DNA of 64,000 nucleotides from NCBI RefSeq assembly GCF_018613235.1, contig NZ_JAGGQP010000016.1, positions 1 to 64,000 of the forward strand. The letters run 5' to 3'. This document shows, piece after piece, positions 28,361 to 52,257 of this stretch. The position numbers and the translations under genes are program-made. Source of the stretch: Bacillus sp. ISL-41 (GTDB lineage: Bacteria > Bacillota > Bacilli > Bacillales > Cytobacillaceae). Each line of letters opens with the position of its first letter. The first letter of the stretch is position 1. The notes beneath the pieces are model-generated. The model ran no database searches. It had not been told where the DNA came from and saw only the letters and a program-made list of their open reading frames with translations.

Positions 28361-28403
28361 TGTGACTTAAATCACTGTATTGACGCGTTTTCACCATTAA
28401 CAT
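28361..28403 (+). promoter_or_regulatory. Crp/Fnr-box promoter of the ba3 oxidase operon
   Basis: TGTGACTTAAATCACT (28361-28376) matches 9 of 10 positions of TGTGA-N6-TCACA. A -10-like TAACAT lies at 28398-28403, 21 nt further on, so the box centre is about -41.5 from a start near 28410. An overlapping SigA-like pair TTGACG (28380)/TAGTAA (28403) with 17-nt spacing is an alternative. 28170-28360 shows no gene. Confidence 0.65.
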
Positions 28404-28533
28404 AGTAAATATATCAGGTATGAACAATTTGTGAACTGTCTGAAACCATATTTACGTTTCCAAATTGTTTTGTATTATGAAAATGTACTTATCATTTATA
28501 AACGAACATTTCATACGAAGGGAGTGGACCGGG

Positions 28534-28683
28534 ATGGCTCAGCCTGGAATCGGGAAGAAAACACATACAAAGGTGGAAGACCAATCTTCCTTGAAAGGAA
28601 CACTTGCATCCGTTTTCTTGTTAGGATTCTTTTTAATCGTTACTTGGGTAGGCGTTTATTTCTTGTTTGTTGATCGTTTCTAA
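28534..28683 (+). CDS. Cytochrome c oxidase subunit IIa (ba3 type)
   Basis: A 49-aa protein with a polar lead and a single transmembrane helix (LASVFLLGFFLIVTWVGVYF), ending FVDRF. Size, topology and position directly before subunit II match the CoxIIa subunit of Thermus-type ba3 oxidases. The ATG at 28534 follows GGGAGTGG. First gene of the oxidase operon. Confidence 0.8.
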   Translation: MAQPGIGKKTHTKVEDQSSLKGTLASVFLLGFFLIVTWVGVYFLFVDRF

Positions 28684-28710
28684 GATAGACCAAAAGGGGA
28701 GAAAGAAGTT

Positions 28711-29187
28711 ATGCATATTCATAAATTTGAAAAAATCTGGCTGATATTCGGAATTACGACCTTAATCGTATTCCTGACTGTTATTGGGGTCAGCGCCTTC
28801 TATTTAGGCAACCAGCCTCCGAGCTGCCTGGCAACAATCAATCCTGAAAAGGTAGATACTACAGCACCTTTCGATAAACCTGGACTAAAGAAGGTTGAAG
28901 GAAAAGAATGGGATTACGAACTTGTTTTCGTGGCATCGGCATTTGCCTACAACCCTGGACAGGTCGAAGTTCCTAAAGGAGCTAAAGTGAAAGTAATCGC
29001 GACTACAAAAGACGTCATTCACGGTTTCCAGGTTGCAGGAACTAATATCAACATGATGCTTGAGCCTGGATATATCAGTGAGTACGTCACCACGTTTGAC
29101 AAAGCCGGTGATTACCTGATTGTTTGTAATGAATATTGTGGTGTCGGCCACCACATGATGTCGTCTAAAATCGAGGTGGTAGAATAA
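28711..29187 (+). CDS. Cytochrome c oxidase subunit II (ba3 type, CuA)
   Basis: A 158-aa subunit with one N-terminal membrane anchor (about 10-32) and an extracellular cupredoxin domain. The dinuclear CuA site is complete: His near 106 (VIHGF) and CNEYCGVGHHMM near 137. It passes electrons from cytochrome c to subunit I. Short length and single anchor mark the ba3 class (CbaB), unlike aa3 CtaC. Its TAA overlaps the subunit I ATG by one base. Confidence 0.92.
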   Translation: MHIHKFEKIWLIFGITTLIVFLTVIGVSAFYLGNQPPSCLATINPEKVDTTAPFDKPGLKKVEGKEWDYELVFVASAFAYNPGQVEVPKGAKVKVIATTKDVIHGFQVAGTNINMMLEPGYISEYVTTFDKAGDYLIVCNEYCGVGHHMMSSKIEVVE

Positions 29188-30842
29188 TGAATACTAAATC
29201 AATTAATCCAAAGGTTGACCGCCGAGACGGCAAATTGGCAATGGCCCACTTTTATGTCGCTTTCATCGCTCTTGCAATTGGCGGTCTTGCAGGTTTGCTC
29301 CAGACACTTGTCCGTTCAGGAAAATTTGAATTACCTTCATGGACTGGGTATTACCAAATCCTTACCATCCATGGTGTCGTACTTGGACTCGTGCTTACAA
29401 CATTTTTCATTATGGGATTCCAGCTCTCTCTTGTGAGCAAAACATCCGGAACATTAACAAATAAACAGCGAAAGACTGGCTGGATTGGTTTCTGGACGAT
29501 GACCATCGGTACTGTAATGGCTGCTATCATGATCCTGACAAACCAGGCTTCTGTTCTTTATACATTCTACGCACCATTACAGGCACACGCACTCTTTTAC
29601 TTGGGACTTACACTCGTGATCGTCGGAAGCTGGATTGACGGCGCTGCAATCATCATGGCTTACTCTTCGTGGAGAAAAGCTAATCCTGGAAAGCCTAGCC
29701 CGCTGTTGACTTTCATGTCACTCGTCAACACGCTTATGTGGATCGTAGCTACGATTGGTGTTGCTGCAACAGTACTATTCCAGCTGCTTCCTTGGTCGCT
29801 TGGCCTTGTTGAGCGTGTAGATGTATTGGTCAGCCGTACATTGTTCTGGTATTTCGGCCACCCGCTTGTGTATTTCTGGTTATTGCCTGCATATATGGCC
29901 TGGTACGCAATCGTTCCAAAAATTATAGGCGGAAAGATTTTCTCTGATTCATTAGCTAGAATGTCATTCATTCTGTTCCTGTTGTTCTCAATTCCGGTTG
30001 GTTTCCACCACCAGTTAATGGAACCAGGTATTGACCCAGCATGGAAATTCCTTCAGGTTATTTTGACTTTCCTTGTTGTCATCCCATCATTGATGACCGC
30101 ATTCTCATTGTTTGCGACATTTGAAATGTTTGGCCGTTCTAAAGGATCTACCGGCCTATTCGGCTGGGTGAAAAAGCTTCCTTGGGGAGATGCCCGATTC
30201 GCAGTACCTTTCATAGGTATGCTTGCATTCATCCCTGCCGGTGCTGGTGGACTAGTCAACGCTTCCCACCAGTTGAACCAGGTAGTACACAACACAATCT
30301 GGGTTACAGGACACTTCCATTTAACACTTGCAACTTCAGTTGTCCTTACTTTCTTTGGGATTTCTTATTGGCTGGTCCCTCACCTGACTGGCAGGGTCTT
30401 GACAAAGGCTATGAATAAACTAGCCATTATCCAGGGAATTGTTTGGGCAATCGGTATGACATTCATGTCCGGTGCGATGCACGCAGCTGGTCTCCTTGGA
30501 GCTCCACGCCGTTCTTCATTCTCAACGTACGGCGGTTCAGAGCAAGCAGCTGAATGGATTCCTTACCAGGTTGCACAGGCAGTCGGCGGATCTATCCTGT
30601 TCCTTGGAATCATCCTGATCCTTTACATTTTCATTAACCTTGCATTCTTCGCACCTAAAGGGGAAGAAGAATTCCCTGTTGGAGAAGTTGCTGACCAAGC
30701 AGAGAAAACTCCGATGGTATTCGAAAACTGGAAGCTATGGCTTGGCATCACTGTCCTTTTGATTCTCTTCGCATACACGATACCGTTCATCGATATGATC
30801 GAAAATGCACCGATCGGGTCGAAGGGATATAAATTCTTCTAA
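29187..30842 (+). CDS. Cytochrome c oxidase subunit I (ba3 type)
   Basis: A 551-aa haem-copper oxidase catalytic subunit with about 13 membrane helices. Haem and CuB ligands are visible: His in TIHGVVLG (helix II), GHPLVYFWLLPAY (CuB His and Tyr), HHQLMEPG and the two His of TGHFHLTL. It reduces O2 to water and pumps protons; B-type oxidases have high O2 affinity. B. subtilis lacks this operon but Geobacillus and other Bacillaceae have it. Control by a Crp/Fnr box fits microaerobic use. Confidence 0.93.
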   Translation: MNTKSINPKVDRRDGKLAMAHFYVAFIALAIGGLAGLLQTLVRSGKFELPSWTGYYQILTIHGVVLGLVLTTFFIMGFQLSLVSKTSGTLTNKQRKTGWIGFWTMTIGTVMAAIMILTNQASVLYTFYAPLQAHALFYLGLTLVIVGSWIDGAAIIMAYSSWRKANPGKPSPLLTFMSLVNTLMWIVATIGVAATVLFQLLPWSLGLVERVDVLVSRTLFWYFGHPLVYFWLLPAYMAWYAIVPKIIGGKIFSDSLARMSFILFLLFSIPVGFHHQLMEPGIDPAWKFLQVILTFLVVIPSLMTAFSLFATFEMFGRSKGSTGLFGWVKKLPWGDARFAVPFIGMLAFIPAGAGGLVNASHQLNQVVHNTIWVTGHFHLTLATSVVLTFFGISYWLVPHLTGRVLTKAMNKLAIIQGIVWAIGMTFMSGAMHAAGLLGAPRRSSFSTYGGSEQAAEWIPYQVAQAVGGSILFLGIILILYIFINLAFFAPKGEEEFPVGEVADQAEKTPMVFENWKLWLGITVLLILFAYTIPFIDMIENAPIGSKGYKFF

Positions 30843-30866
30843 AAAACACTTTCTATGAATCAACCA

Positions 30867-30915
30867 AAACAGGGTATGAAATTGCAAAAAATTTCACCCT
30901 GTTTTTTGTTGTTTT
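30867..30915 (+). terminator. Terminator of the ba3 oxidase operon
   Basis: AACAGGGT pairs with ACCCTGTT with an inner GAAATT/AATTTC stem (30868-30902), followed by TTTTTTGTTGTTTT. Confidence 0.85.
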
Positions 30916-31104
30916 AGCAGCATTTATACGATTAACATATAAATAAAAAACTTAATATCACACTATTTAGCATGCTGATCTTGTCATTCCCGCCCTGTTA
31001 TTTTACATACAAAATACCTGCCATTAAAATCGAACATAACCCGATGCCTACCAATATAAGAGGCTTGTTATGGGCCGCATCATGGAATAGCTTATTCGAC
31101 TTCC

Positions 31105-31136
31105 ATGAAAAAAATAGGATGCCTCAGCATCCTATT
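31105..31136 (-). terminator. Terminator of asnS
   Basis: Stem TAGGATG/CATCCTA (31115-31134) followed on the minus strand by TTTTTTTC. Between 30915 and 31105 I see no confirmed gene. Confidence 0.85.
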
Positions 31137-31159
31137 TTGCATTTTCACACATATTTTAA

Positions 31160-32551
31160 TTAAAATTCTGCATTTCCTGGTGTACGAGGGAATGGAATGA
31201 CATCGCGGATGTTTTTCATTCCAGTTAGATACATAACAAGTCGTTCGAATCCAATACCATAACCAGAATGCTTTGTGCTGCCGTATTTTCTAAGCTCGAG
31301 ATACCACCAGTAATCTTCTTCCGCCATACCAAGTTCTTTAATTCGCTCTGCAAGAACGTCTTCTCTTTCCTCACGCTGGCTTCCGCCGATTAACTCGCCA
31401 ATGCCGGGAACCAAAAGGTCTGTCGCGGCAACTGTCTTGCCATCCTCATTCGCTCGCATATAAAATGCCTTAATTTCTTTCGGATAGTCGGTTACGAAGA
31501 CAGGACGTTTGTAAATTTCCTCGCTAAGGTAACGTTCATGTTCCGTTTGCAAATCTGTACCCCATTCAACAGGGTATTCAAATTCCTTATCTGAGTTCTT
31601 CAATAATTCAACAGCTTCGCTATAAGTAACGCGTCCGAAATCGGATTCTAATGCATTCTTCAATCTTTCGATAAGTGTTTTATCAATAAAGCTGTTAAAG
31701 AAGGCCATTTCTTCTGGTGCATGTTCAAAAACGTAATCAATGACATACTTGACCATTTCTTCTCCAAGGTCCATGATATCCGGTAATTCTGCAAAGGCAA
31801 CTTCCGGCTCGATCATCCAGAATTCTGAGGCATGTCGTGCCGTATTGGAATTTTCTGCTCTGAATGTCGGACCAAAGGTATACACATTACGGAAAGCAAG
31901 AGCAAAGCTTTCGACATTTAATTGGCCGCTAACAGTTAAGTTTGTTTCTTTACCGAAGAAATCTGCACTGTCATCCACTTTTCCGTCTTCGGTTTTTGGA
32001 AGCTGGTTCAAGTCCATTGATGTTACACGGAACATCTCCCCTGCTCCTTCAGTATCACTTCCGGTAATAATCGGTGTATGTACATATACAAACCCTTTGT
32101 CTTGAAAGAATTTATGAAGGGCATAGGATGCAAGAGATCTTACTCTGAAGACGGCTGAGAAGGCGTTGGCTCTCGGACGTAAATGAGCGATTGTTCTCAA
32201 ATATTCAAGGGTATGTCTCTTTTTTTGTATAGGATAATCTGTATCCGACAATCCCTCGACTACAATTTTTGTTGCTTTAATTTCAAACGGCTGCTTCATT
32301 TCAGGAGTTGGAACAAATTCACCTTCTACTAAAACAGAAGAGCTAATAGGCAACTTTGTAATTTCTTTGAAGTTATCAAGGGTATCTTCAAAAACAACTT
32401 GTACACTCTTAAAGAATGTTCCATCGTTTAACTCCATAAAACCAATGGTTTTGGAATCGCGTAGCGTACGGATCCACCCTGTAATTTGAACAGTTTTGTC
32501 TTTAAAATTTTCTTGATTTCTGTATAAATCTTTTACTACGGTCTTAATCAT
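31160..32551 (-). CDS. asnS: Asparaginyl-tRNA synthetase
   Basis: A 463-aa class IIb synthetase. The N-terminal OB-fold anticodon domain (about 1-105) is followed by the catalytic core with motif 2 [19 protein letters not shown] and motif 3 [13 protein letters not shown]. It charges tRNA-Asn with Asn. The ATG at 32549-32551 follows AAGGAGG; the longer frame runs into the T-box. In B. subtilis asnS lies between dnaD and aspB; here that slot is empty and asnS sits alone under a T-box, a different arrangement. Confidence 0.95.
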
Positions 32552-32581
32552 AATTAGCCTCCTTATGGTAATTTTTTTGCA

Positions 32582-32840: not shown

Positions 32841-32997
32841 ATATGTAGTTTTCAAAGGATTTTTACTGTAATAATTTATCACAAAACATAATCCTTTGTC
32901 TAGTTGCCCCCTAAGTTATCTGCATTTTTCGCTAAAAATCTTTGATTACAATCTAAAGTGAAACAATTTACCTAAACGAAAAAGTGCTTTAATTTAA

Positions 32998-33036: not shown

Positions 33037-33089
33037 TGTTAATTCGTGCGTTTATTATTTGCTTTTTTACCACTTCAAACGAGATTGAA

Positions 33090-35958: not shown

Positions 35959-36192
35959 TTATTTCGTTTTACCGATTGCCACTCGCCATGTTTCTGGGCC
36001 TTCCTCTAGATACTCCCATGAAAATGACTCCGGGCGTTCCATCATGAATTGGTATTGCAGCGGTCTAGGGTCATGGTCATTGACGATTTGCATGAATTCC
36101 CCCTTGTGCAGTGAGTCAAAGTTTTGGAATATGGTCGGGTGTTTTTCCCGTGGGGCATAATCAGGAACATTGATAATAACATTGAAAGTCAT
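35959..36192 (-). CDS. DUF2249 domain protein
   Basis: A 77-aa protein, essentially one DUF2249 domain: NVPDYAPREKHPTIFQNFDSL, then HDPRPLQYQF and a C-terminal WRVAIGK. The family has a SirA/TusA-like fold and often accompanies hemerythrin, NO reductase and Crp/Fnr genes; the biochemical role is unknown. The promoter has a Crp/Fnr box at -41.5. It is one of three DUF2249 genes within 4.5 kb. Confidence 0.85.
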   Translation of the reverse strand: MTFNVIINVPDYAPREKHPTIFQNFDSLHKGEFMQIVNDHDPRPLQYQFMMERPESFSWEYLEEGPETWRVAIGKTK

Positions 36193-36232: not shown

Positions 36233-36275
36233 ATTATAATTCTCCTGTATCCCACTTGTAGTGAGCGCGGTCACA
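36233..36275 (-). promoter_or_regulatory. Crp/Fnr-box promoter of the DUF2249 gene
   Basis: Minus strand TGTGACCGCGCTCACT (36275-36260) matches 9 of 10 key positions; 21 nt on is a perfect TATAAT (36238-36233). Box centre is about -41.5 from a start near 36226, the classic class II activator geometry. Confidence 0.75.
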
Positions 36276-36559: not shown

Positions 36560-38923
36560 TTAATCTTCATCAATAGCCAAATCTTTTACTGGCAGCTGTT
36601 CTTCTTCTTTATGTGTCACATTACGGAGATTGAAGAGTGCTTTTAAGCTGAATATTGCCAGCGCAGCAACACCAATCAAGAAAATCGTATCTGGTATTGC
36701 CCTCAGCGTCAGGAGCATTTCAACTGTTTCCCGCTGTAAGAACTGAGATGAACGTGAAGCTGCATAACCATTGAAATATGCTTCTTTTAACTGAAGATAT
36801 CCGACTGGCAGCAATGACAGGAATACCATGCCAGCCAAGCCTGCGTTCAGCATGATGACTATGAATTTAACCCACCTGTCGTTCCACTTTTCAGGCTTCA
36901 CAATATTGCGCAATGAGTAGATCAATACTGCGCCTGCGAACATTCCATACACACCCATCATCGCCGCGTGGCCGTGTGCTGGTGTCAGGAATTGGCCGTG
37001 CTCAAGGAAGCTGACTGCAGGCAGGTTGATCAGGAAGCCAAGTACACCTGCACCTACCAGATTCCAAATGGCTACTGAAATCAAGAACCAGAATGTACCT
37101 TTATAAGGGAAATCAACTCCCCCATCCCTCATCATTTTGTACTGTTCATATGCTTCCAGAATGAGCAAGGTCAACGGGATGACTTCCAGAGCAGAGAATA
37201 CAGAACCGAGCGCAATCCAGACTTCGGAAGAACCATTGTAATAATAATGGTGGCCGATACCGATGACACCTGCTCCCATCAGCAGGATTAACTGGAAGTA
37301 TAATGCTTTTATTGTTGATTTTTTCGTGACTAGCTTCATTTGGACCATTAAGAAACCAATGACAACGACTGCGAAAACTTCGAATATTCCTTCAACCCAG
37401 AGATGGATGATCCACCAGCGCCAGTAGTCAGCAAAGGTATAGTGTGTGCCTGGATTGATCATGAAAGCGAAGAAGTAAAATGCTGGCACGGCAATTGCTG
37501 AGTAAAACAACAGGTGAATCAGGCCGCCTTTGTCTGATTCCCTCTTCAACCCACTCTTGATCCCGCGGAATACGATGAACAGCCAGATCAGCATTCCGGT
37601 CGCAAGAATGAACTGCCATATGCGTCCCAGCTCAAGGTATTCCCAGCCCTGGTGACCTAATAAGAACCAATTGTTGCCCAGGTAGCCGTTTGCACCAAGC
37701 CATTGGCCAATCATGCTGCCGGCTACAAGCACAACTAGTGCCCAGAATAATATGTCGACTAGTATTCCCTGGCGCTTTGGTTCATGCCCGCCGACCAGCG
37801 GAGCGATGAAGATGCCCATTCCTAACCATGCAGTCGCAATCCAGAAGATTGCCAGCTGAAGGTGGAATCCTTTTGTAATATTGAATGGCAGGATATCATG
37901 GACCCACTTCATTCCAAAGAAACTGTCAGGCTCGATATAATAGTGAGCGAGCAGCGCTCCGAACATTGCCTGAACAAAGAACAGTACAGAAACAACCGCG
38001 AAATACTTACCTGTTTTCAATTGCGAGGATGTAAGCGGAAGCTTCCTCAAATCGATTTTCGGGAAGTTCCCGGCTGTATAAGCCTCTTGCATCCCTAAAT
38101 GATAACGGTAGAAAACAAACAGGATTAATCCTACGAATAGGATCAATATGGTCACACTCGCACCACTCCACCAGATTGCAGAGAAGGACATAGTGTTTCC
38201 GGCATCCTCATAATATGGCCAGTTATTTGTATAAGTAATATCATCTTCGGGTCTTTCTGTACTTGAAAGCCATGCTGTCCAGAAAAAGAAATCAGCGATT
38301 TGCTCAATCTGATCGCCCTTTGATACCCAGGCTCGCTCCCCGTCCGGCATATGTTTTTCCTGAATTAACCCTGGCTTTAGACCCCACTGATCACCTTCAG
38401 TAAAAATAGTATGATAGAATTCCCTTACCTTTTCGTGCCCATTTATTTGTGCCTCTGTCAGCACCAGCTTATCGGTATCCGGCACATAACGGTTTTCACG
38501 CATCTCCTTCATGACAGTGTCCCGGATGATTGTTTGTTCATCTCCCGTCAACGCTTTAAAAGCCTTACCATATTTTTCTTGTGACTTGAAGTCATGCATC
38601 CCATCAGTATAAATTTTCAGTGCCTCTGCCGTGTAATCAGGCCCCATATAGGATCCATGCCCTAATACAGTTCCATAATCCATCAAACCATATTTCTGGA
38701 AGACAGCCTGCCCTCCCATGATGCTTTCTTTCGTTAAGATGACCTCTCCCTTTTCGTTTGTCACTTCTAGCGGCCTAGGAGCCATATCTTTAAAGATCCA
38801 GTAACCTCCTGTCAGGAGTACTGTAAAGCTAAGTAATAATGTGATGATGAGTACGGATTTCAGCAGTGAGTTTCTATTTTTCTTGACCACTGCCTTCGTG
38901 GATGTTCCACGCTGGATTTCCAT
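36560..38923 (-). CDS. norZ: Quinol-dependent nitric oxide reductase (qNOR)
   Basis: A 787-aa single-chain NO reductase that reduces 2 NO to N2O. An N-terminal NorC-like extension (first helix about 23-45, then a periplasmic-type domain to about 250) is fused to a NorB core of about 12 helices. Haem/FeB ligand region FHLQLAIFW, GHQGWEYLELGR and WIIHLWVEGIFEV with its conserved Glu are visible, and HGHAAMMGVYG lies near the end. It detoxifies NO or works in denitrification. Crp/Fnr box at -41.5; divergent from a Crp/Fnr gene. Confidence 0.95.
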   Translation of the reverse strand: MEIQRGTSTKAVVKKNRNSLLKSVLIITLLLSFTVLLTGGYWIFKDMAPRPLEVTNEKGEVILTKESIMGGQAVFQKYGLMDYGTVLGHGSYMGPDYTAEALKIYTDGMHDFKSQEKYGKAFKALTGDEQTIIRDTVMKEMRENRYVPDTDKLVLTEAQINGHEKVREFYHTIFTEGDQWGLKPGLIQEKHMPDGERAWVSKGDQIEQIADFFFWTAWLSSTERPEDDITYTNNWPYYEDAGNTMSFSAIWWSGASVTILILFVGLILFVFYRYHLGMQEAYTAGNFPKIDLRKLPLTSSQLKTGKYFAVVSVLFFVQAMFGALLAHYYIEPDSFFGMKWVHDILPFNITKGFHLQLAIFWIATAWLGMGIFIAPLVGGHEPKRQGILVDILFWALVVLVAGSMIGQWLGANGYLGNNWFLLGHQGWEYLELGRIWQFILATGMLIWLFIVFRGIKSGLKRESDKGGLIHLLFYSAIAVPAFYFFAFMINPGTHYTFADYWRWWIIHLWVEGIFEVFAVVVIGFLMVQMKLVTKKSTIKALYFQLILLMGAGVIGIGHHYYYNGSSEVWIALGSVFSALEVIPLTLLILEAYEQYKMMRDGGVDFPYKGTFWFLISVAIWNLVGAGVLGFLINLPAVSFLEHGQFLTPAHGHAAMMGVYGMFAGAVLIYSLRNIVKPEKWNDRWVKFIVIMLNAGLAGMVFLSLLPVGYLQLKEAYFNGYAASRSSQFLQRETVEMLLTLRAIPDTIFLIGVAALAIFSLKALFNLRNVTHKEEEQLPVKDLAIDED

Positions 38924-38960: not shown

Positions 38961-39003
38961 AGCATAATGGGAATGAAATGTTTAGTTTGTGAAGTTCTTC
39001 ATT
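38961..39003 (-). promoter_or_regulatory. Crp/Fnr-box promoter of norZ
   Basis: The 38988-39003 sequence TGTGAAGTTCTTCATT matches 8 of 10 key positions; 21 nt on (minus strand) is TATGCT (38966-38961). Box centre about -41.5 from a start near 38954. The same -10 hexamer and spacing recur at hcp. Confidence 0.65.
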
Positions 39004-39010: not shown

Positions 39011-39026
39011 TGTGATATTTCCCACA
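39011..39026. promoter_or_regulatory. Second Crp/Fnr box in the norZ-crp gap
   Basis: TGTGATATTTCCCACA matches 9 of 10 key positions. It lies 23 bp from the norZ box centre-to-centre (about two turns) and is not at the 21-nt spacing to any -10, so it may be an auxiliary site. Confidence 0.5.
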
Positions 39027-39030
39027 GCAA

Positions 39031-39045
39031 TGATAATTATTTTCA
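39031..39045. promoter_or_regulatory. Fur-box-like site in the norZ-crp gap
   Basis: TGATAATTATTTTCA matches 14 of 15 positions of the 7-1-7 Fur consensus TGATAATnATTATCA. Position between two divergent promoters suggests iron (or NO acting through Fur) input; this is inference. Confidence 0.5.
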
Positions 39046-39059: not shown

Positions 39060-39102
39060 TATGATTCAGGTCACTTAGCCCTCCTCTTTCCCTTGATAAA
39101 AT
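39060..39102 (+). promoter_or_regulatory. Crp/Fnr-box promoter of crp/fnr-1
   Basis: TATGATTCAGGTCACT (39060-39075) matches 8 of 10 key positions; 21 nt on is TAAAAT (39097-39102). Box centre about -41.5 from a start near 39109, suggesting autoregulation or control by the second paralogue. Confidence 0.6.
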
Positions 39103-39144: not shown

Positions 39145-39834
39145 ATGCATATATCACAAATCAAACAGCAATTGAAAGAAGTTCCTATTTTCAAAGAATT
39201 ATCGACAGAGGAGCTGGATCCGATCATAGAAATCGCCCAGCCAAGATTCTTTAAAAATAAAATGTATGCTTTCATGCAGGGAGATCCGCTAGACCGCGTT
39301 TTCTTCATTCATTCAGGGAAGGTGAAAATTTATAAAACCGACTCATCAGGAAGAGAACAAATCGTTTCTGTCCTTGAATCCGGTGAAATGTTTCCTCACG
39401 CTGGCTTCTTCAGGAAAGGCCAATATCCTGCCCACGCGGAAATAATGGAAGACACACTGATGATCATCGTACCAATCTCTAAATTTGAAGAGATCCTGGT
39501 TGCCTATCCCGAACTATCTATTAAGTTATTCCGAGTCCTTGGAGAGAAGATCATTGATTTGCAGGCCAGGCTCGAGGAACAGATTCTTCACAATACATAC
39601 GAACAGATCATTATGCTGTTACTCCGCCTTTGCAAGACAAATGGAGAAAAGAAGGAACATGGATTTAAATTGACCACCCATTTTACCAATAAGGAATTTG
39701 CCAACATGATCGGTACTTCCAGGGAAACCGTCAGCAGAACCATCAACCATTTAAAGAAAAAAGATTACTTAAGTTTGGATCCTGACGGCTACTATCTGAT
39801 CGACCATGAAAAATTGCATCAGGAATTGTTTTAA
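39145..39834 (+). CDS. Crp/Fnr family transcriptional regulator (paralogue 1)
   Basis: A 229-aa regulator: cyclic-nucleotide-binding-like beta-roll (about 15-115), long dimerisation helix (about 120-145) and winged HTH with TNKEFANMIGTSRETVSRTI. ETVSR is the recognition helix of the Fnr branch. It has one Cys only, so it cannot hold an Fnr-type [4Fe-4S] cluster. A conserved EMFPHAGFFRKG loop with a His is shared with the 50093 paralogue. Adjacent to norZ, so NO or redox sensing is likely but inferred. Confidence 0.9.
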   Translation: MHISQIKQQLKEVPIFKELSTEELDPIIEIAQPRFFKNKMYAFMQGDPLDRVFFIHSGKVKIYKTDSSGREQIVSVLESGEMFPHAGFFRKGQYPAHAEIMEDTLMIIVPISKFEEILVAYPELSIKLFRVLGEKIIDLQARLEEQILHNTYEQIIMLLLRLCKTNGEKKEHGFKLTTHFTNKEFANMIGTSRETVSRTINHLKKKDYLSLDPDGYYLIDHEKLHQELF

Positions 39835-39860: not shown

Positions 39861-39903
39861 AGTGATGCGTATCACGGCAGAAAAGAGTGAAAATGATTAT
39901 CAT
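39861..39903 (+). promoter_or_regulatory. Crp/Fnr-box promoter of the DUF2249 operon, with Fur-like site
   Basis: AGTGATGCGTATCACG (39861-39876) matches 8 of 10 key positions and is itself a GTGAT/ATCAC palindrome; TATCAT (39898-39903) is 21 nt on, putting the box near -41.5 from a start near 39910. A Fur-like site TGAAAATGATTATCA (39888-39902, 14 of 15) overlaps the -10, so Fur would block polymerase. Confidence 0.65.
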
Positions 39904-39941: not shown

Positions 39942-40181
39942 ATGGAACACAGAACGATAGAATTGGATGTGCGTGAGGATATAAATAACAAGCTGGAGCC
40001 TTTCCAAAAAATCATGGAAGCCATTGGCGATTTAGAATTGAATGACAGACTGGTCCTCCATGCACCTTTCAAGCCTGTCCCCTTGTATGGGGTTTTAAAA
40101 GCAAAGGGATTTGAACACGTAGTCGAAAAAATCGAGGCAAAACATTATAAAATCACTTTTACAAAAAAGGGAGGGAAATAA
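39942..40181 (+). CDS. DUF2249 domain protein (operon gene 1)
   Basis: A 79-aa single DUF2249 domain: TIELDVREDINNKLEPFQKI, then LNDRLVLHAPFKPVPLYGVL and a C-terminal HYKITFTKKGG strand. Predicted SirA-like alpha/beta fold; function unknown. First gene of a four-gene operon with a second DUF2249 gene starting 2 nt later. Confidence 0.85.
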   Translation: MEHRTIELDVREDINNKLEPFQKIMEAIGDLELNDRLVLHAPFKPVPLYGVLKAKGFEHVVEKIEAKHYKITFTKKGGK

Positions 40182-40182
40182 G

Positions 40183-40398
40183 ATGATCCTGGATAACAGA
40201 GGGCTTGAACCGCCACAGCCGATGATGCGGACACTGGCAAAGCTGGAGGAGCTTGAGGAAGGACAGACGCTTATCATTATCAATGACCGACGTCCGATGT
40301 TTCTGTTCGAGCAGCTTGATGAACTAGGATATCTTTATTTGACTGAACAGCAAGAAGATGGAAGCTATCGCGTGACTATTTCCCGCAAAGCGGGGTGA
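40183..40398 (+). CDS. DUF2249 domain protein (operon gene 2)
   Basis: A 71-aa DUF2249 domain: LDNRGLEPPQPMMRTLAKLEEL with EPPxPM typical of SirA-like folds, LIIINDRRPMFLFEQL and a C-terminal YRVTISRK. Distinct in sequence from gene 1, so the two may form a heteromer. GGGAGG ribosome site lies between the genes; the stop overlaps the region of the next gene start. Confidence 0.85.
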   Translation: MILDNRGLEPPQPMMRTLAKLEELEEGQTLIIINDRRPMFLFEQLDELGYLYLTEQQEDGSYRVTISRKAG

Positions 40399-40403
40399 AT
40401 CAA

Positions 40404-41648
40404 ATGTTTCAGCAAAACAGTGGTAACGAAACAAATATAAAGCTTCCTTTTTCATTCATCGGCTTCAGCATGCTCGCGTTAATTCTTTCACAGCTGCTAA
40501 TCCTGCTGAACGGTGACCTTCTTGTTTCCGGCGTATTCCGATTGCCGGCAATCTGGTCAGCTGCACATCTGTTCGTACTCGGCTGGGCCCTGATGGTAGC
40601 TATGGGTGCCATGTACCAGCTGGTCCCTGTCGCATTCCTGACACCGATTTGGAACGAAAAATTTGGATTTTGGCAATTGGCTGTAACGACTGCAGGAATC
40701 GTATCTTTCGCTGCAGCATTATACCTTCGCCCACAGGATGCCTTGGTTCCAGGAATCCTGACATTGCTCGGAATTTTGATGTTCATATTTCAGATGTTCA
40801 TGACGCTTAAAAGCCAGGCAAAACCAAATATCTTAACTTTGTTCGTCGGTACTGCACTGTTTTCTCTCCTGGCAACAATTACACTTGGTATCACATTGGT
40901 TCTGAGCATGAAGTCAGGTTTTGCATCAGAGTATTATCAAGCTATTTTTAAAACTCATATCCTGCTGGGTACAGTGGGCTGGTTCTCATTATTGATCTTT
41001 GGTTTTTCTTATAAAATGGTTCCGATGTTCTCACTTTCACATGGGTATTCCATGAAACCGGCACCATTTGTATTCGGTGTTTATGTTGTTGGAATTATCA
41101 TTTTGATCTTTTCCTTCTTAACGGGCAGCCATTTATTTGAAGTGTTGGGAACTTTCATGCTATTTGCCGGATTCATGATTTTCACCTGGCATGTCAAAAT
41201 AATCATTGATAAGCGTGTGAAGAAGAAGCTTGACCGCCCATTCATGTTCGCCTTATTTGCGATTGGCTGCGGTGCTTTAATCCACTTTGCCGCTTTTGCA
41301 GGAAGTGCCGCAAATCTCCTTTCAAAAATGGCAGGGCCGATTATTTTACTATATTTAGTCGCCTGGATTGCTTTCAGTATCATTGGTTATCTATATAAGA
41401 TCGTCCCATTCCTGTGGTGGACTCATAAATACAGCAAGGAAATCGGTAAAAAGAAGGTGCCTGCGTTAAAGGACATGATGGATGAGAAGCTGGCACTGCC
41501 GCTTTTCATCTTGTTTACTGCCGGGACGATCCTTCTATTACTTTCATTCATTGCCAGGCTGATGCCGGTCTTTTACATCGGTCAGGGATTGATTGTTATC
41601 GGGACTGTCCTATTCAGCTATATTATCGCCAAAGTGGTCACTATTTAA
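40404..41648 (+). CDS. Polytopic membrane protein, NnrS / haem-copper oxidase subunit I-like
   Basis: A 414-aa protein with about 12 hydrophobic helices. Histidines sit within helices as in haem proteins: WSAAHLFVLGW near 38, FKTHILLGTVGW near 184, LSHGYSMKP, GCGALIHFAAF near 295 and FLWWTHKYSK. This layout recalls NnrS and NorB/CcoN-like proteins; whether it binds haem or is an enzyme is not known. ATG at 40404 preferred (GGGGTG 6 nt upstream) over the GTG at 40395. It is coupled to the DUF2249 pair. Confidence 0.7.
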   Translation: MFQQNSGNETNIKLPFSFIGFSMLALILSQLLILLNGDLLVSGVFRLPAIWSAAHLFVLGWALMVAMGAMYQLVPVAFLTPIWNEKFGFWQLAVTTAGIVSFAAALYLRPQDALVPGILTLLGILMFIFQMFMTLKSQAKPNILTLFVGTALFSLLATITLGITLVLSMKSGFASEYYQAIFKTHILLGTVGWFSLLIFGFSYKMVPMFSLSHGYSMKPAPFVFGVYVVGIIILIFSFLTGSHLFEVLGTFMLFAGFMIFTWHVKIIIDKRVKKKLDRPFMFALFAIGCGALIHFAAFAGSAANLLSKMAGPIILLYLVAWIAFSIIGYLYKIVPFLWWTHKYSKEIGKKKVPALKDMMDEKLALPLFILFTAGTILLLLSFIARLMPVFYIGQGLIVIGTVLFSYIIAKVVTI

Positions 41649-41661
41649 GGAGGAGTTAGAA

Positions 41662-41967
41662 ATGAATGAATTATTGGAAAAAATCAGGGGAAATTTAAAA
41701 ACTGTGATCGATCCAGAATTGAATATTAATGTTGTGGATCTAGGTTTGATATATGAAATAGATGTTCCAGAACCCCGCAAAGCAAAGATTTTAATGACAC
41801 TGACAACTCCGGGCTGCCCACTTCATGACAGCATCGCCAGCGGCATTAAATATTGCGTACAAGGCATGGAGGAAATTGACCATGCAGACGTCCAATTGAC
41901 ATGGGAGCCAGCCTGGACACCAGAACGGATGACCGAGGATGGAAAAAGACTGCTTCAGGGTTTTTAA
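41662..41967 (+). CDS. DUF59/MIP18 family metal-sulfur cluster assembly protein
   Basis: A 101-aa DUF59 (PaaD/SufT-like) protein. TVIDPELNINVVDLGLIYEI and TLTTPGCPLHDSI, with its conserved Cys, are diagnostic. The family helps mature Fe-S proteins or the Fe-S/di-iron enzymes damaged by NO. AAGGAGG lies upstream. Last gene of the DUF2249 operon, which ends in a strong terminator. A repair role for NO-damaged clusters is inference from context. Confidence 0.88.
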   Translation: MNELLEKIRGNLKTVIDPELNINVVDLGLIYEIDVPEPRKAKILMTLTTPGCPLHDSIASGIKYCVQGMEEIDHADVQLTWEPAWTPERMTEDGKRLLQGF

Positions 41968-47593: not shown

Positions 47594-47608
47594 ATTCCCC
47601 CTCCTTTC

Positions 47609-49885
47609 CTACACAGCGGCTTTAAGGAATAAATCCAGTAATTTTATGACGTCATTTTTTGAATGAATAGATGATGTATCCGTTCCGATGCAGGATGGGC
47701 ACCCGTCGGCACATTGGCAATTCATGACCATTTTTTTAGTTTGGTTCAAAATTTCTTCGATTCCGGTATATATTTTTTCGCTTAACCCGATCCCTCCAGG
47801 GTAGCGGTCATAAAAGAAGATAGTTGGCTTTTCATTATGAGCCGCTTTGACCTGCGGGACTACATGAACGTCAGAGGGATCGCACATTACGAATAATGGG
47901 GCGATATGTTTTAGTGCCTGGGATGTCCCAATCAGCCCTTCCTCAAGCCGGTCATGGCCGAACTCCGACAGCTCTTTGTTCAGTGATATCCATGCTGAGC
48001 TTGTATGGAGCTCCTCTTCCGGAAGGAAAATCGGTCCTGAGCCAATATTCTCATGTGTTTCAAACCGGATCTTCTTGAAAATTGTTGCCATTGCTCTGAC
48101 ACTGACATCGCCATAGCCGATTGCTGTTTCTTCATTGCCTCTGATTTTATCTTCTTCAAGGACGCTAAGCTGGACAGCAAGGTTGGCATCGGTAAAATAA
48201 TCGACATCCACTTCACGGACAAACGCCTTCTTTTCTTCCCAATCAAGCTTTTCCACCTGGAATTGTATTCCCTGGTGGAGATAAATGGCTTCTTCATGCA
48301 GCAATGTCATCGCTGAAAAAGTATCCATTTCGCCAATCACCCTTACATTTGCAACATCTGACTGGTCTATGATCACGACATTTTCCTGTGATGCTGAACG
48401 CAGGCTGATATTGTGTGCCGGGAAAGCGTCATTCATCCAGAACCACTTATCTCCGTTCTGGTGCAGGATACGCTCTTCCGTCAAATATTCAAGTATTTCC
48501 TCAATTTCAGCAGCACCAAAAGTGTCGCCCTTTTTGAAAGGCAATTCATAGGATGCACATTTGATGTGATCGATCAGGATAATCAAATTGTCCGGGTTGA
48601 TTCTCGCCGTTTCCGGACTGCGAGTAAAAAAGTAATCAGGATGCTGGATAACGTATTGATCCAGCGGGCTGGAGCTCGCCACCATGATGACAACCGATTC
48701 ACCGTGGCGGCGTCCTGCCCGCCCTGCCTGCTGCCAGGCACTGGCAATCGTTCCAGGGTATCCGTTCATGATACATACCTGAAGCTGTCCGATATCGACA
48801 CCAAGTTCCAGTGCGTTTGTGCTGACTACTCCATATATATCACCCGAACGCAAGCCTTTTTCAATTTCGCGCCTTTCTGTCGGAAGATAGCCGCCCCGGT
48901 ATCCTCTTATTGCCTTTGGACCGAGCTTGTGTTTGACAAGCTCCTGAAGATAAGTAAGCAGGATTTCGACTCTCACCCTACTTCTTGCAAACACGATGGT
49001 CTGAATCTTATTTTTCAGGAACTCACCTGCGAGCCTCCTGGTTTCAAGCGTTGCACTTCTGCGGACATTCAGCGGAATATTGACGACTGGAGGATTATAA
49101 AATAAAAAGTGCTTCCTTCCTGAAGGAGCCCCATTATTGTCAATCAGGACCATATCCTTTTCAGTCAGACCCTCAGCCAATTCAAGTGGATTTGCAATCG
49201 TCGCGGAAGTACAGATGAAAACGGGATCGCTTCCATAGTAATTGCAGATTCTTTTTAATCTTCTAATGACATTTGCCACATGGCTGCCAAAGACTCCCCT
49301 GTAAATATGTAATTCATCAATGACGACATACTTCAGGTTTTCAAAAAGGGAAACCCATTTTGTATGATGCGGAAGGATCGCAGAATGGAGCATGTCCGGG
49401 TTTGTTATAACGATATGCCCTGCTCTCCTGACCTTCTGGCGGATATTAGAAGGAGTGTCTCCGTCATATGTATAACTATTGATTGCCAGCTCCGCCTCCT
49501 GGATCAATTCATTGATTTCACTCTTCTGGTCTTGGGCCAGCGCTTTTGTCGGGAACATATAGAGCGCCCTGGCATTCGGATCATTAATGATTGATTGAAG
49601 CACTGGCAAGTTATAACACAATGTTTTCCCTGAAGCAGTCGGCGTGACAGCCACAATGCTTTGCCCCTTCATGATTTGTTCATATGAAGACTTCTGATGT
49701 GTATACAGGCGGGAAATTCCGCGTCTTTCAAGTGCGTTTCTTAATACGCCGCTTAATTCCTCTGGCATCTCTTCCGTTTGAGCTTCTCGCTCTTCAATCG
49801 TATGCCAGTGGACAATGTTTTTCTTAACCGATTCACTAACCTTTAGATCTTGCAAAATCTCTTGCATGCTTTTCCGGACCTTCAT
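47609..49885 (-). CDS. yprA: DEAH-box helicase YprA (MrfA)
   Basis: A 758-aa superfamily 2 helicase. Walker A TPTASGKT near 80, DEAH-type VIDELHIYRG near 189, STNALELGVD and QQAGRAGRR (motif VI) near 385. A C-terminal DUF1998 domain with CQCADGCPSC supplies a four-Cys zinc site. It unwinds DNA 3-prime to 5-prime in repair of mitomycin-induced damage with YprB. The ATG at 49883-49885 follows GAGGTG by 6 nt. Confidence 0.95.
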   Translation of the reverse strand: MKVRKSMQEILQDLKVSESVKKNIVHWHTIEEREAQTEEMPEELSGVLRNALERRGISRLYTHQKSSYEQIMKGQSIVAVTPTASGKTLCYNLPVLQSIINDPNARALYMFPTKALAQDQKSEINELIQEAELAINSYTYDGDTPSNIRQKVRRAGHIVITNPDMLHSAILPHHTKWVSLFENLKYVVIDELHIYRGVFGSHVANVIRRLKRICNYYGSDPVFICTSATIANPLELAEGLTEKDMVLIDNNGAPSGRKHFLFYNPPVVNIPLNVRRSATLETRRLAGEFLKNKIQTIVFARSRVRVEILLTYLQELVKHKLGPKAIRGYRGGYLPTERREIEKGLRSGDIYGVVSTNALELGVDIGQLQVCIMNGYPGTIASAWQQAGRAGRRHGESVVIMVASSSPLDQYVIQHPDYFFTRSPETARINPDNLIILIDHIKCASYELPFKKGDTFGAAEIEEILEYLTEERILHQNGDKWFWMNDAFPAHNISLRSASQENVVIIDQSDVANVRVIGEMDTFSAMTLLHEEAIYLHQGIQFQVEKLDWEEKKAFVREVDVDYFTDANLAVQLSVLEEDKIRGNEETAIGYGDVSVRAMATIFKKIRFETHENIGSGPIFLPEEELHTSSAWISLNKELSEFGHDRLEEGLIGTSQALKHIAPLFVMCDPSDVHVVPQVKAAHNEKPTIFFYDRYPGGIGLSEKIYTGIEEILNQTKKMVMNCQCADGCPSCIGTDTSSIHSKNDVIKLLDLFLKAAV

Positions 49886-50092
49886 AGCGTTCACCTCGTT
49901 ATCCCTATTTTACCGAATAAACGTTCGTTACAAAAGATAAAAGTTCAATAAATCAAACTGCTATTTTTTGGAAAACACACTTTTCCATCCCTAATATTCT
50001 CTATTTGACCTTCCTCGAAACAATCTGTTATGTCTTTTAAATCAGCCTTTTGTTAAAATAGAGTGGACAAACAGCTGATAGAGGTGTTTTTT

Positions 50093-50785
50093 TTGAATAA
50101 AAATGAGATAAAAAGGGTCCTGGCTAAATTTTCTTTGTTCAGGGATCTTGATGATAATGAACTAGATAAGATTGTCGATATATCAATTTCCCGAGAGTGG
50201 AAGAAAAACAGCCATATTTTCATGCAGGGCGATCCACTGGAAAATGTGTATTTTATTAATGAGGGAAAAGTGAAAGTCTATAAAAGTGATGCCAATGGCC
50301 GGGAGCAGATTGTGGCCATCCTGAAAAAAGGAGAGATGTTCCCGCATGTCGGTTTTTTCCGGAAAGGCGGCTATCCAGGTTATTCCGAGGTACTGGAACA
50401 GGCAAGCATTGTCGTGGTTCCGATTTTACAATTCGAGAAAGTCCTAGTTGATAACCCTCACTTAAGTATCAAGGTATTCAAGGTCCTTGGAGAAAAAATT
50501 GTTGATCTTCAAGAAAGGCTTGAAGCACAAATCCTGAACAACACTTATGAACAGATCATCAAGCTTTTGATCAGGCTGGGAGAACTTCATGGAGAAAAAC
50601 AGGAGGACGGCACGGTTTTGCTGAAGGCTGATTTCACAAACAAAGACCTCGCCAATATGATTGGAACAACCAGAGAAACAGTTAGCAGGACATTGACTAA
50701 AATGAAAAAAGATGAACTAATCTCTACTGATACAAACGGGAACATGGTATTGAACCCTGATGTTTTGATGGATGAGCTTGTTTAA
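50093..50785 (+). CDS. Crp/Fnr family transcriptional regulator (paralogue 2)
   Basis: A 230-aa regulator strongly similar to the 39145 gene: beta-roll with MQGDPLENVYFINEGKVKVY, EMFPHVGFFRKGGYP loop, dimer helix and HTH FTNKDLANMIGTTRETVSRTL. It has no cysteine at all, ruling out an Fe-S cluster. The TTG at 50093 is chosen because GAGGTG lies 6 nt upstream. No TGTGA box precedes it; TTGACC/TATGTC around 50006-50035 may be its promoter. It is convergent with hcp. Confidence 0.9.
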   Translation: MNKNEIKRVLAKFSLFRDLDDNELDKIVDISISREWKKNSHIFMQGDPLENVYFINEGKVKVYKSDANGREQIVAILKKGEMFPHVGFFRKGGYPGYSEVLEQASIVVVPILQFEKVLVDNPHLSIKVFKVLGEKIVDLQERLEAQILNNTYEQIIKLLIRLGELHGEKQEDGTVLLKADFTNKDLANMIGTTRETVSRTLTKMKKDELISTDTNGNMVLNPDVLMDELV

Positions 50786-50842
50786 TTTACTAGTAGACGC
50801 AAACCCTTTAATACTTTTCTTTACTATATAAGAAACATAGTA

Positions 50843-50871
50843 AAACGCCCGGATTCTGCTCCGGGCGTTTT
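50843..50871. terminator. Bidirectional terminator, crp/fnr-2 / hcp
   Basis: Stem AAACGCCCGG/CCGGGCGTTT (50843-50870), T-rich on both sides. Confidence 0.88.
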
Positions 50872-50876
50872 ACTTA

Positions 50877-52178
50877 TTATTCAGTTTTGCTTAATCCCAT
50901 CATTGTTTCCAAATCTTCCTGTGCGGTTGTGATCAACTTCAGGTTGAAGGTTTCCTGAAGAACTTCCATCACTCCATCAGAAATGAATTCTGGCGGCTTA
51001 GGCCCAATGCGGATATCCTGAATTCCAAGGCTGAACAATCCAAGCAGGATCGCTACAGCTTTTTGCTCGAACCAAGAAAGGACGATACTTACAGGCAGCT
51101 CATTTACGTCACATTCAAACGCATCAGCAAGTGCCTTAGCGATTTTCACAGTGGATACAGAGTTATTGCACTGTCCAAGATCCAAGTACCTAGGGATGTC
51201 TGTTCCAGGAACCACACCATAATCTACATCATTGAAACGGAATTTTCCGCAAGAAGTTGTCAGGATCACAGCTTCAGGAGGAAGTGATGTCGCAAGCTCA
51301 CGGTAGTATTCTCCCCCTTTACCAGGTGCGTCACAGCCTGCAATGACGAAGAATCGCTTGATCTTCCCGGATTTTACTGCATCGATAACCTCTGGCGCTA
51401 GGCCGATCACTGTTTCATGGTGGAAGCCTGTCACTAATGTTTCTTCAGATTCCATATTTGCTTCAGGAAGCTCCAATGCTTTTTCAATTAGCATTGTGAA
51501 ATCATCATTTTCTATTTTTCTTACATTTTCAAGGCCTGTAACTTCATAAGTGAACATACGGTCTGCATATGAACCTTTGATTGGCATTACACAGTTTGTC
51601 GTAGCCAGGATAGCTCCTGGGAACTTTTCAAACAGGCGGCGCTGGTCGAACCATGCTTTCCCGATGTTCCCCTTAAGATGCGGGTACTTTTTCAATGCCG
51701 GATAACCATGGGCAGGAAGCATCTCGGAGTGTGTATAGATGTTGATTCCTTTTCCTTCTGTTTGCTTCAATAATTCTTCAAGCGCGAACAGGTTATGTCC
51801 TGTTACGACGATGCATTTTCCTTCAATCTTATTCTGGCTGACCTTTACCGGCTGAGGGATCCCAAGGCGACTCGTATGCGCTTCATCAAGAAGCTCCATC
51901 ACGCGAACTGCTGATTGGCCAACCTTCATAGCCATATCGATATGTTCTTGTACATTGAAGTTTGAGTTAGTTAATGTCATATATAATGCTTCATGGGTTG
52001 TTGCGTCAACAAATGGATCTGTGAAACCAAGCTGATTCGCATGTGTTCTATATGCTGCAATCCCCTTCAAAGCAAAAATCATTGTATCCTGAAGACTAGC
52101 GATCGTTTCATCTTTTCCGCACACACCAACAACTGTACATCCCCCTGTTGGCGTTTGTTCACATTGGTAACAAAACAT
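50877..52178 (-). CDS. hcp: Hybrid-cluster protein / hydroxylamine reductase
   Basis: A 433-aa Fe-S enzyme. The N-terminal cluster motif is Cys3, Cys6, Cys14 and Cys20 (MFCYQCEQTP...). Hybrid-cluster ligands are visible in VTGHNLFALEE, TTNCVMP, AGCDAPG, TTSCGKFR and LGQCNNS. It is about 120 aa shorter than the 550-aa class I/II enzymes, resembling the short class III form. Hcp reduces NO or hydroxylamine under anaerobiosis. Crp/Fnr box at -41.5 links it to norZ. Confidence 0.93.
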   Translation of the reverse strand: MFCYQCEQTPTGGCTVVGVCGKDETIASLQDTMIFALKGIAAYRTHANQLGFTDPFVDATTHEALYMTLTNSNFNVQEHIDMAMKVGQSAVRVMELLDEAHTSRLGIPQPVKVSQNKIEGKCIVVTGHNLFALEELLKQTEGKGINIYTHSEMLPAHGYPALKKYPHLKGNIGKAWFDQRRLFEKFPGAILATTNCVMPIKGSYADRMFTYEVTGLENVRKIENDDFTMLIEKALELPEANMESEETLVTGFHHETVIGLAPEVIDAVKSGKIKRFFVIAGCDAPGKGGEYYRELATSLPPEAVILTTSCGKFRFNDVDYGVVPGTDIPRYLDLGQCNNSVSTVKIAKALADAFECDVNELPVSIVLSWFEQKAVAILLGLFSLGIQDIRIGPKPPEFISDGVMEVLQETFNLKLITTAQEDLETMMGLSKTE

Positions 52179-52214
52179 ATGTGTATTCCCCTCTTCTGCG
52201 TTATTTACTTTTTC

Positions 52215-52257
52215 AGCATACAGAGGATGAAAATCCAGTTAAGTGACCTAAATCACA
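52215..52257 (-). promoter_or_regulatory. Crp/Fnr-box promoter of hcp
   Basis: Minus strand TGTGATTTAGGTCACT (52257-52242) matches 9 of 10 key positions; 21 nt on is TATGCT (52220-52215), the same hexamer as at norZ. Box centre about -41.5 from a start near 52208. Confidence 0.75.

What the first reader, a model, noticed from the sequence alone, without database searches (positions are those of the whole stretch)
28361..52257. Six promoters share one Crp/Fnr-box geometry, defining a likely NO/low-oxygen regulon
TGTGA-N6-TCACA-like boxes at 28361 (ba3 oxidase), 36260 (DUF2249), 38988 (norZ), 39060 (crp/fnr-1), 39861 (DUF2249 operon) and 52242 (hcp) each lie exactly 21 nt from a -10 hexamer, so every box is centred about -41.5. 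Weak individual boxes become convincing because the spacing is identical in six cases. It ties a high-affinity oxidase, NO reductase, hybrid-cluster protein and uncharacterised DUF2249 proteins into one unit within 24 kb.
Basis: partly seen in the sequence, partly recalled or inferred. Interest (0 to 1): 0.8.

Follow-up and report, generated by a model that had tools for sequence, protein, structure and literature searches.

The report
Nitric-oxide regulon under unusual Crp/Fnr regulators
Six promoters in this Bacillus relative carry the same control site at exactly the same distance from the presumed start of transcription, and comparison with relatives that lack individual regulators suggests that a little-studied regulator family without an iron-sulfur cluster, rather than the usual oxygen sensor, switches on their nitric-oxide defence and respiration genes.

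Summary
Each of the six boxes has a TANNNT -10 hexamer exactly 21 nt downstream; 0.2 such matches are expected by chance in the window. An unbiased test agrees: 29 perfect palindromes of the genome, chosen without regard to promoters, show TANNNT at 21 nt in 14 of 58 site-strands, against a mean of 1.5 at other spacings. The geometry is conserved across Bacillaceae.

The geometry is the ordinary class II (-41.5) arrangement. What is new is the likely regulator. Both window regulators (CRP1 beside norZ, CRP2 beside hcp) lack the Fe-S cysteines and share an FPHxGFF motif. A relative whose only Crp-type HTH over the Pfam cut-off is CRP2 has nine such promoters, all before NO or respiration genes. 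The ba3 box is present in 31 of 31 examined genomes with CRP2 and missing in 4 of 4 without it, one of which has an Fe-S Fnr.

NO as signal is inferred; low oxygen is not shown.

The parts
28314..28344 (-). TTCACA repeats at 28314, 28328 and 28339, ResD-like by recalled motif, upstream of the ba3 box
   Evidence: the 11-bp pair is kept also in relatives that lost the box
28361..28376 (+). Crp/Fnr box TGTGACTTAAATCACT of the ba3 promoter
28398..28403 (+). -10 hexamer TAACAT, 21 nt after the box
28534..28683 (+). 49-aa ORF with one hydrophobic stretch, first ORF of the ba3 transcript
   Evidence: function inferred from position
28711..30842 (+). ba3-type oxidase subunits II (28711-29187) and I (29187-30842)
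   Evidence: Pfam COX2 and COX1
35959..36192 (-). DUF2249a
   Evidence: PF10006
36260..36275 (-). Crp/Fnr box TGTGACCGCGCTCACT of DUF2249a; -10 TATAAT at 36233-36238
   Evidence: 21-nt spacing in 42 of 47 relatives
36560..38923 (-). norZ, quinol-type NO reductase
   Evidence: PF22085 and PF00115
38988..39003 (-). proximal Crp/Fnr box AATGAAGAACTTCACA of norZ; -10 TATGCT at 38961-38966
39011..39026 (-). second, distal norZ box TGTGGGAAATATCACA, 23 bp upstream of the first
   Evidence: second box at exactly 23 bp in 49 of 60 norZ promoters
39031..39045 (+). Fur-like box TGATAATTATTTTCA (1 mismatch to 7-1-7)
   Evidence: a Fur-like match in this intergenic region in 25 of 55 relatives
39060..39075 (+). 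Crp/Fnr box TATGATTCAGGTCACT of crp1; -10 TAAAAT at 39097-39102
   Evidence: 21-nt spacing in 47 of 55 relatives
39145..39834 (+). crp1: Cys-poor Crp/Fnr regulator with FPHAGFF motif
   Evidence: PF00027 and PF13545
39861..39876 (+). Crp/Fnr box AGTGATGCGTATCACG of the DUF2249b operon; -10 TATCAT at 39898-39903
   Evidence: 21-nt spacing in 22 of 50 relatives
39888..39902 (+). Fur-like box TGAAAATGATTATCA overlapping that -10
   Evidence: a Fur-like match in this intergenic region in 19 of 46 relatives
39942..41967 (+). operon: DUF2249b (39942-40181), DUF2249c (40183-40398), COX1/NnrS-like membrane protein (40395-41648), FeS_assembly_P protein (41593-41967)
   Evidence: gene order in relatives
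50063..50785 (+). crp2: Cys-free paralog of crp1 (53% identity) with FPHVGFF; no box in its own upstream region
50877..52178 (-). hcp, hybrid-cluster protein, 433-aa short form
   Evidence: NF003658
52242..52257 (-). Crp/Fnr box TGTGATTTAGGTCACT of hcp; -10 TATGCT at 52215-52220
   Evidence: box in 28 of 28 relatives with a located start, 21 nt in 23 and 22 nt in 5

Best explanation
The six promoters are class II activator-dependent promoters of a dispersed NO and respiration regulon. A dimer of the Cys-poor Crp/Fnr regulators CRP1 or CRP2 binds TGTGA-N6-TCACW centred at -41.5, takes the place of a -35 element and recruits RNA polymerase. CRP2, which has no such box before its own gene, is the older and sufficient regulator of hcp, ba3 oxidase, DUF2249, ScdA, YwiC and hemerythrin genes. 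CRP1, whose own promoter carries the box, would be an induced amplifier beside norZ. Most likely both sense NO through a ligand, probably heme, held at His85 in place of the cAMP-binding Glu. At norZ two boxes 23 bp apart probably bind two dimers, and Fur-like boxes at two promoters add iron or NO input. Shown by computation: geometry, conservation, co-occurrence of box and CRP2, motif, Fur-like boxes. Inferred: activation, NO as signal, heme, the CRP2-to-CRP1 order.
For: Unbiased peak at 21 nt (11 of 50 outside the window). 21-nt spacing in relatives: crp1 47 of 55, DUF2249a 42 of 47, norZ 60 of 80, hcp 23 of 28 (5 more at 22), ba3 26 of 28, DUF2249b 22 of 50. Natural knock-outs: G046 has no Fnr match at E 1e-25 and one Crp-type HTH over the Pfam cut-off, CRP2; it has 9 strict matches against 1 control, before 2 DUF2249a-like, DUF2249b-like, radical SAM, ScdA-like, YwiC, hemerythrin, ba3 and hcp genes. 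ba3 box in 31 of 31 genomes with a CRP2-type protein, 0 of 4 without; in three of those four an alignment shows the rest of the promoter kept. Close hcp in 0 of 13 genomes without CRP1/2 and 61 of 78 with. CRP1/CRP2 form a clade apart from the four Fnr paralogs (support 0.97) and have invariant R193, E194, R198 and H85 in 82 of 82 orthologs.
Against: No start site, binding or expression was measured. With the looser pattern CRP-only genomes show no clear genome-wide excess (63 matches against 43 control in 4 genomes), nor do genomes with neither regulator (108/62) or Fnr only (268/200), while the 16 genomes of the own genus show 546/118, so Fe-S Fnr may own many of the sites here. G004 and G029, the two other CRP2-without-Fnr genomes, have further Crp-type proteins that I did not identify. 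The four genomes without CRP2 are few and two are of one genus; P 1.9e-5 ignores kinship. 20 of 80 norZ promoters show no such box and 10 of the 19 intergenic matches elsewhere in this genome stand before genes I could not link to NO. DUF2249b lacks it in 28 of 50. No heme evidence; H85 is lost in 2 of 10 divergent relatives.
Confidence: 0.75

Rival explanations
1. The boxes are ordinary Fe-S Fnr sites: one or more of the four Fnr paralogs activates them at low oxygen, and CRP1/CRP2 are bystanders or minor partners.
For: Four Fnr paralogs with the C-terminal cysteine motif in the genome, with the same R, E and R in the recognition helix. The consensus TGTGANNNNNNTCACA is that used for Fnr in Bacillus (Table 1 of PMC8151001, passage seen). 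Genome-wide excess of the loose pattern is clear in the own genus, which has both types, and not in CRP-only genomes.
Against: G046 keeps nine promoters with no Fnr match. G023 has a clear Fnr (65% identity) but its ba3 box has decayed. hcp stays linked to crp2 and co-occurs with CRP1/2.
Confidence: 0.2
2. Mixed ownership: CRP2/CRP1 and Fe-S Fnr share the boxes, so that each promoter integrates oxygen and NO, with norZ using its two boxes for two different dimers.
For: Same recognition residues; nirB-like, MFS-transporter and YwiC-like targets elsewhere in the genome, with Fnr paralogs beside the C15 sites; the norZ proximal box is often RATGA rather than TGTGA, the distal one mostly consensus.
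Against: No test separates the owners site by site in this genome. This is compatible with the best explanation and differs only in degree.
Confidence: 0.4
3. Rex or another palindrome-binding repressor accounts for the boxes.
For: Rex boxes TTGTGAAW4TTCACAA (abstract of PMC2883068, listing) contain GTGA-N6-TCAC.
Against: None of the 14 sites with the 21-nt spacing has the full Rex pattern; one of the 29 palindromes has it and lacks the spacing. A fixed -41.5 position is the mark of an activator.
Confidence: 0.02
4. Chance: weak boxes and AT-rich hexamers chosen by eye.
For: Individual boxes such as AATGAAGAACTTCACA are weak.
Against: Shuffles, unbiased profile and conservation.
Confidence: 0.01

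Closest known systems
Bacillus subtilis-type Fnr regulon
   Same: Box TGTGA-N6-TCACA (PMC8151001 Table 1, passage) and, from recall, a -41.5 position; YwiC as target is recalled.
   Different: Fnr carries a [4Fe-4S] cluster on C-terminal cysteines (PMC3520743, passages); CRP1 has one Cys, CRP2 none, and the regulon holds hcp, norZ, ba3 and DUF2249 genes.
HcpR (Desulfovibrio, Porphyromonas)
   Same: Cys-less Crp/Fnr-type, linked to hcp, site wTGTGAnnnnnnTCACAw (PMC1274295, passages); NO response through heme in P. gingivalis (PMC12750200, passages).
   Different: HcpR uses Met68; CRP1/CRP2 have His85 in the cAMP pocket and belong to aerobic or facultative Bacillaceae. Direct phylogenetic comparison with HcpR was not made.
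DNR / NnrR of proteobacterial denitrifiers
   Same: Works like them: Crp/Fnr proteins without Fe-S ligands that control NO reductase genes.
   Different: Different DNA motif (recalled); not compared by tree.
B. licheniformis fnr2-qnorB neighbourhood
   Same: A Crp/Fnr gene beside qnorB is described (PMC4719734, passages); in the B. licheniformis group the norZ-side protein has the FPH motif at 41-43% identity and norZ has one box at 21 nt from a -10.
   Different: That paper names it a second Fnr and, in the passages seen, gives no box or regulon; the DUF2249 operon was not found beside norZ there.
CooA (CO sensor)
   Same: A heme Crp/Fnr protein; recalled heme ligand His77 lies in the same strand-turn region as H85.
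   Different: No alignment of H85 with CooA His77 was obtained; recall only. CooA-1 matched the 71-aa segment at E 0.12 to 0.33.

Membership tests
Class II Crp/Fnr-dependent promoter | Box centred at -41.5, one fixed spacing to -10 | tested here: met
   start sites themselves not mapped
Class II Crp/Fnr-dependent promoter | No good -35 element | tested here: met
   0 to 4 of 6 matches to TTGACA at 16-18 nt spacing; hcp is best with TTAACT
Class II Crp/Fnr-dependent promoter | Transcription depends on the regulator | not testable with these tools
   needs expression data
Fe-S Fnr (Bacillus type) | C-terminal cysteine motif for [4Fe-4S] | tested here: not met
   CRP1 one Cys, CRP2 none; present in four other paralogs
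cAMP-binding CRP | Glu in the GEL of the phosphate-binding cassette, and the following Arg-Ser | tested here: not met
   H85 stands opposite that Glu and Y-P-A-H opposite E-R-S; 82 of 82 orthologs have H85
HcpR | Co-localised with hcp | tested here: met
   CRP2 only; crp2 lies beside hcp in the window and in most hcp loci fetched
HcpR | Membership in the HcpR clade | not tested
   no HcpR sequences were aligned
HcpR | NO-responsive heme | not testable with these tools
   needs purified protein
Rex site | TTGTGAAN4TTCACAA | tested here: not met
   0 of 14 sites with the 21-nt spacing
Fur box | 7-1-7 TGATAATNATTATCA | tested here: met
   two sites with 1 mismatch, conserved; binding by Fur not tested

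The most novel reading that the evidence does not exclude
Bacillaceae own an undescribed clade of Crp/Fnr regulators marked by FPHxGFF, in which the cAMP-contacting Glu became a heme-ligating His. They would be the NO sensors that stand in for NsrR, HcpR or NorR: CRP2 as the core sensor and CRP1 as an autoactivated amplifier at norZ, with paired dimers 23 bp apart and Fur as a second, NO-sensitive gate. DUF2249 proteins would be a core part of the NO response.
Probability: 0.45. Interest if true: 0.75.

Novelty: new variant of a known kind. Interest (0 to 1): 0.6.

Why it matters
How Gram-positive soil bacteria sense NO outside the NsrR and ResDE cases is poorly described. Norz-type NO reductase makes N2O, so the switch bears on nitrous oxide emission by Bacillaceae. 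The finding gives a named regulator pair, a defined site geometry, and a genome (G046) in which one protein carries the regulon, so it can be tested with one deletion. It also places DUF2249 proteins, of unknown function, inside a conserved NO regulon, in line with their induction in haloarchaeal denitrification (PMC11218638, passages) and the DrpA proposal in Thermus (PMC6282519, passages).

Tried and rejected
Rex and chance were rejected. A structure model of CRP1 (pLDDT 88.6) matched GlxR and M. tuberculosis CRP best; this is the generic Crp fold and says nothing about the ligand. Regulator presence against genome-wide counts of the loose pattern did not separate CRP from Fnr (only 39 of 121 genomes were tallied: the 23 lacking at least one regulator type and the 16 of the own genus). 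A Pfam Rrf2 search of the own genome gave two proteins over the cut-off, a CymR-like and a YwnA-like one by eye, without the three-cysteine pattern that I recall for NsrR; absence of NsrR is likely, not proven. Two ba3 loci of genomes lacking CRP1/2 with more distant oxidases (G043, G083; 65% identity) have no box of 9 of 10 or better in the 2.5-2.6 kb fetched; I left them out of the 0 of 4. G041 (CRP2, no Fnr) has neither hcp nor ba3 and no such promoter in the 4.5 kb around crp2. G061 gave nothing useful (L161). Literature searches listed no paper describing this regulon; only listings and, for eleven papers, found passages were seen, and the library lacks most subscription journals. Reents 2006 (B. 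subtilis Fnr regulon) is not held and is cited from recall and from citing papers.
Full report
Observation. The six boxes at 28361, 36260, 38988, 39060, 39861 and 52242 are present, each oriented towards its gene, and each has a -10-like hexamer after exactly 21 nt. The exact pattern occurs six times in the window against 0.20 expected and 34 times in the genome against 8 for the reversed control.

Targets elsewhere in the genome. Of the 28 matches outside the window, 9 lie inside open frames of more than 450 nt and 19 are intergenic. Nine of the 19 precede genes that fit: a radical SAM protein, an MFS transporter (NarK-like by eye), ScdA, YwiC, a truncated globin, the second ba3 operon, a flavohemoglobin-like globin, a NirB-like oxidoreductase and DUF438. 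The other ten could not be linked to NO; three of these ten gave no Pfam match or only a weak one, and the rest I did not scan.

Conservation. NorZ relatives from 80 loci (249 relatives found, best 80 kept) show a conserved layout in Mesobacillus, Cytobacillus, Neobacillus, Geobacillus, Anoxybacillus and others: norZ divergent from crp1, DUF2249b, DUF2249c, a COX1/NnrS-like protein and a MIP18-type protein, with DUF2249a beyond norZ (crp1 at 240 bits or more in 55 of 80). The 21-nt spacing holds in 47 of 55 crp1, 42 of 47 DUF2249a, 22 of 50 DUF2249b and 60 of 80 norZ promoters (looser box threshold of 8 of 10). For hcp, the start was located in 28 of 30 loci; all 28 have a box, 23 at 21 nt and 5 at 22 nt. 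For ba3, 28 of 30 loci have a box at the expected place, 26 of them with TANNNT at 21 nt; the two without are G025 and G042.

norZ has a second box exactly 23 bp upstream of the first in 49 of the 60 promoters with a proximal box; of upstream boxes scoring 9 or more, 48 of 55 are at 23 bp. In the window it is TGTGGGAAATATCACA at 39011-39026. Two Fur-like boxes (1 mismatch) lie at 39031-39045 and 39888-39902; they are the only matches this good in the window. In the 80 relatives, matches with up to 2 mismatches occur in 25 of 55 norZ-crp1 and 19 of 46 crp1-DUF2249b intergenic regions, against 71 matches in all 1.05 Mb searched.

Which regulator. The genome has seven Crp/Fnr-type proteins. Four carry the C-terminal cysteine motif of Bacillus Fnr. 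The two in the window do not: CRP1 has one Cys, CRP2 none. They are 53% identical and, with relatives, form a clade apart from the Fnr paralogs (support 0.97). All share the DNA-reading R, E and R, so sequence alone cannot assign the boxes. Genomes lacking one or other regulator can. Among 121 genomes, 19 have no CRP1/2 match at E 1e-40 and 10 no Fnr match at E 1e-25. Three genomes of one genus (G004, G029, G046) have CRP2 and no Fnr match; all three keep a perfect ba3 box with 21 nt and TAACAT, and the hcp box, which in G029 survives although hcp is gone. Four genomes without CRP1/2 that have a close ba3 oxidase (G023, G025, G042, G101) have lost the box; G023 has a clear Fe-S Fnr. In the alignment, which holds G023, G025 and G042, the upstream TTCACA pair, the -10 region and a downstream TTTGTGAA remain, and only the box has decayed. 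Counting all examined, 31 of 31 with a CRP2-type protein against 0 of 4 without (Fisher P 1.9e-5, not corrected for kinship). CRP2 type was assigned by 50-57% identity to CRP1, and by linkage to hcp where seen.

G046 is the strongest case: one Crp-type HTH over the Pfam cut-off, CRP2. The strict pattern GTGA-N6-TCAC-N22-TANNNT gives 9 matches against 1 control (G004 6 against 3, G029 6 against 2; G023 4 against 2, G025 1 against 3, G042 2 against 1, G101 1 against 0). The nine precede two DUF2249a-like genes, a DUF2249b-like gene, a radical SAM gene, an ScdA-like frame (short, 69 aa), YwiC, a hemerythrin-domain gene, ba3 oxidase and hcp.

Results against. The looser pattern shows no clear excess in CRP-only genomes (63 against 43 in four) and a strong one in the own genus, which has both types (546 against 118 in 16). 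So Fe-S Fnr probably owns part of the sites in this genome. G004, G029 and G101 have other Crp-type proteins that I did not identify.

Sensing. H85 is invariant in 52 CRP1 and 30 CRP2 orthologs and stands opposite the Glu of E. coli CRP's GEL motif (that this Glu contacts cAMP is recalled). It is present in 8 of 10 more distant relatives; a second crp1 copy in L075 has Gln and L116 has Leu. This argues against cAMP and makes a heme or other ligand at H85 plausible. That is inference. crp1 carries its own box and crp2 does not, which suggests CRP2 as primary sensor and CRP1 as amplifier; also inference.

Known and new. -41.5 is the standard class II position (E. coli FNR: PMC4886647, passages). 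HcpR binds wTGTGAN6TCACAw and controls hcp (PMC1274295, passages). A Crp/Fnr gene beside qnorB is described in B. licheniformis as fnr2 (PMC4719734, passages). The assignment of a Bacillaceae-wide NO regulon to the FPH-type Crp/Fnr clade, the paired norZ boxes and the Fur-like overlay did not appear in the listings of my ten answered literature searches. I rate it a new variant of a known kind.

Noticed in passing
window 28314-28344: TTCACA repeats upstream of the ba3 box resemble ResD sites (motif recalled); the 11-bp pair is kept even in relatives that lost the Crp/Fnr box.
   Followed up: partly
window 39031-39045 and 39888-39902: Fur-like boxes between norZ and crp1 and over the -10 of the DUF2249b operon, conserved in relatives.
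   Followed up: partly
window 24942-24956 and 24980-24994: Two further Fur-like matches with 2 mismatches, 38 bp apart, in the gap between the ORFs 20972-24646 (-) and 25006-25575 (-).
   Followed up: no
window 28534-28683: 49-aa ORF with one hydrophobic stretch ahead of ba3 subunit II; a small ORF also precedes the second ba3 operon.
   Followed up: no
own genome C15:23151-34414, C5:58323, C24:136139: Four Fnr paralogs with the C-terminal cysteine motif in one genome, two of them on C15 near four matches of the same geometry.
   Followed up: partly
L157 (G029): hcp is gone but its promoter box with 21 nt and TATGTT remains, facing the end of crp2.
   Followed up: no
L075: crp1 is duplicated; one copy has lost the otherwise conserved His85 (FPQTVFFK).
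   Followed up: no
L055 and L124: Public records titled Chryseobacterium sp. ISL-80 and Pseudomonas sp. ISL-84 carry bacillar norZ clusters (91% and 81% identity) and look misnamed.
   Followed up: no
L076 and L077: Where crp1 is missing beside norZ or only a short match remains, norZ has a consensus TGTGAT box with 21 nt instead of the usual RATGA form; L079 has the consensus form with crp1 present.
   Followed up: no
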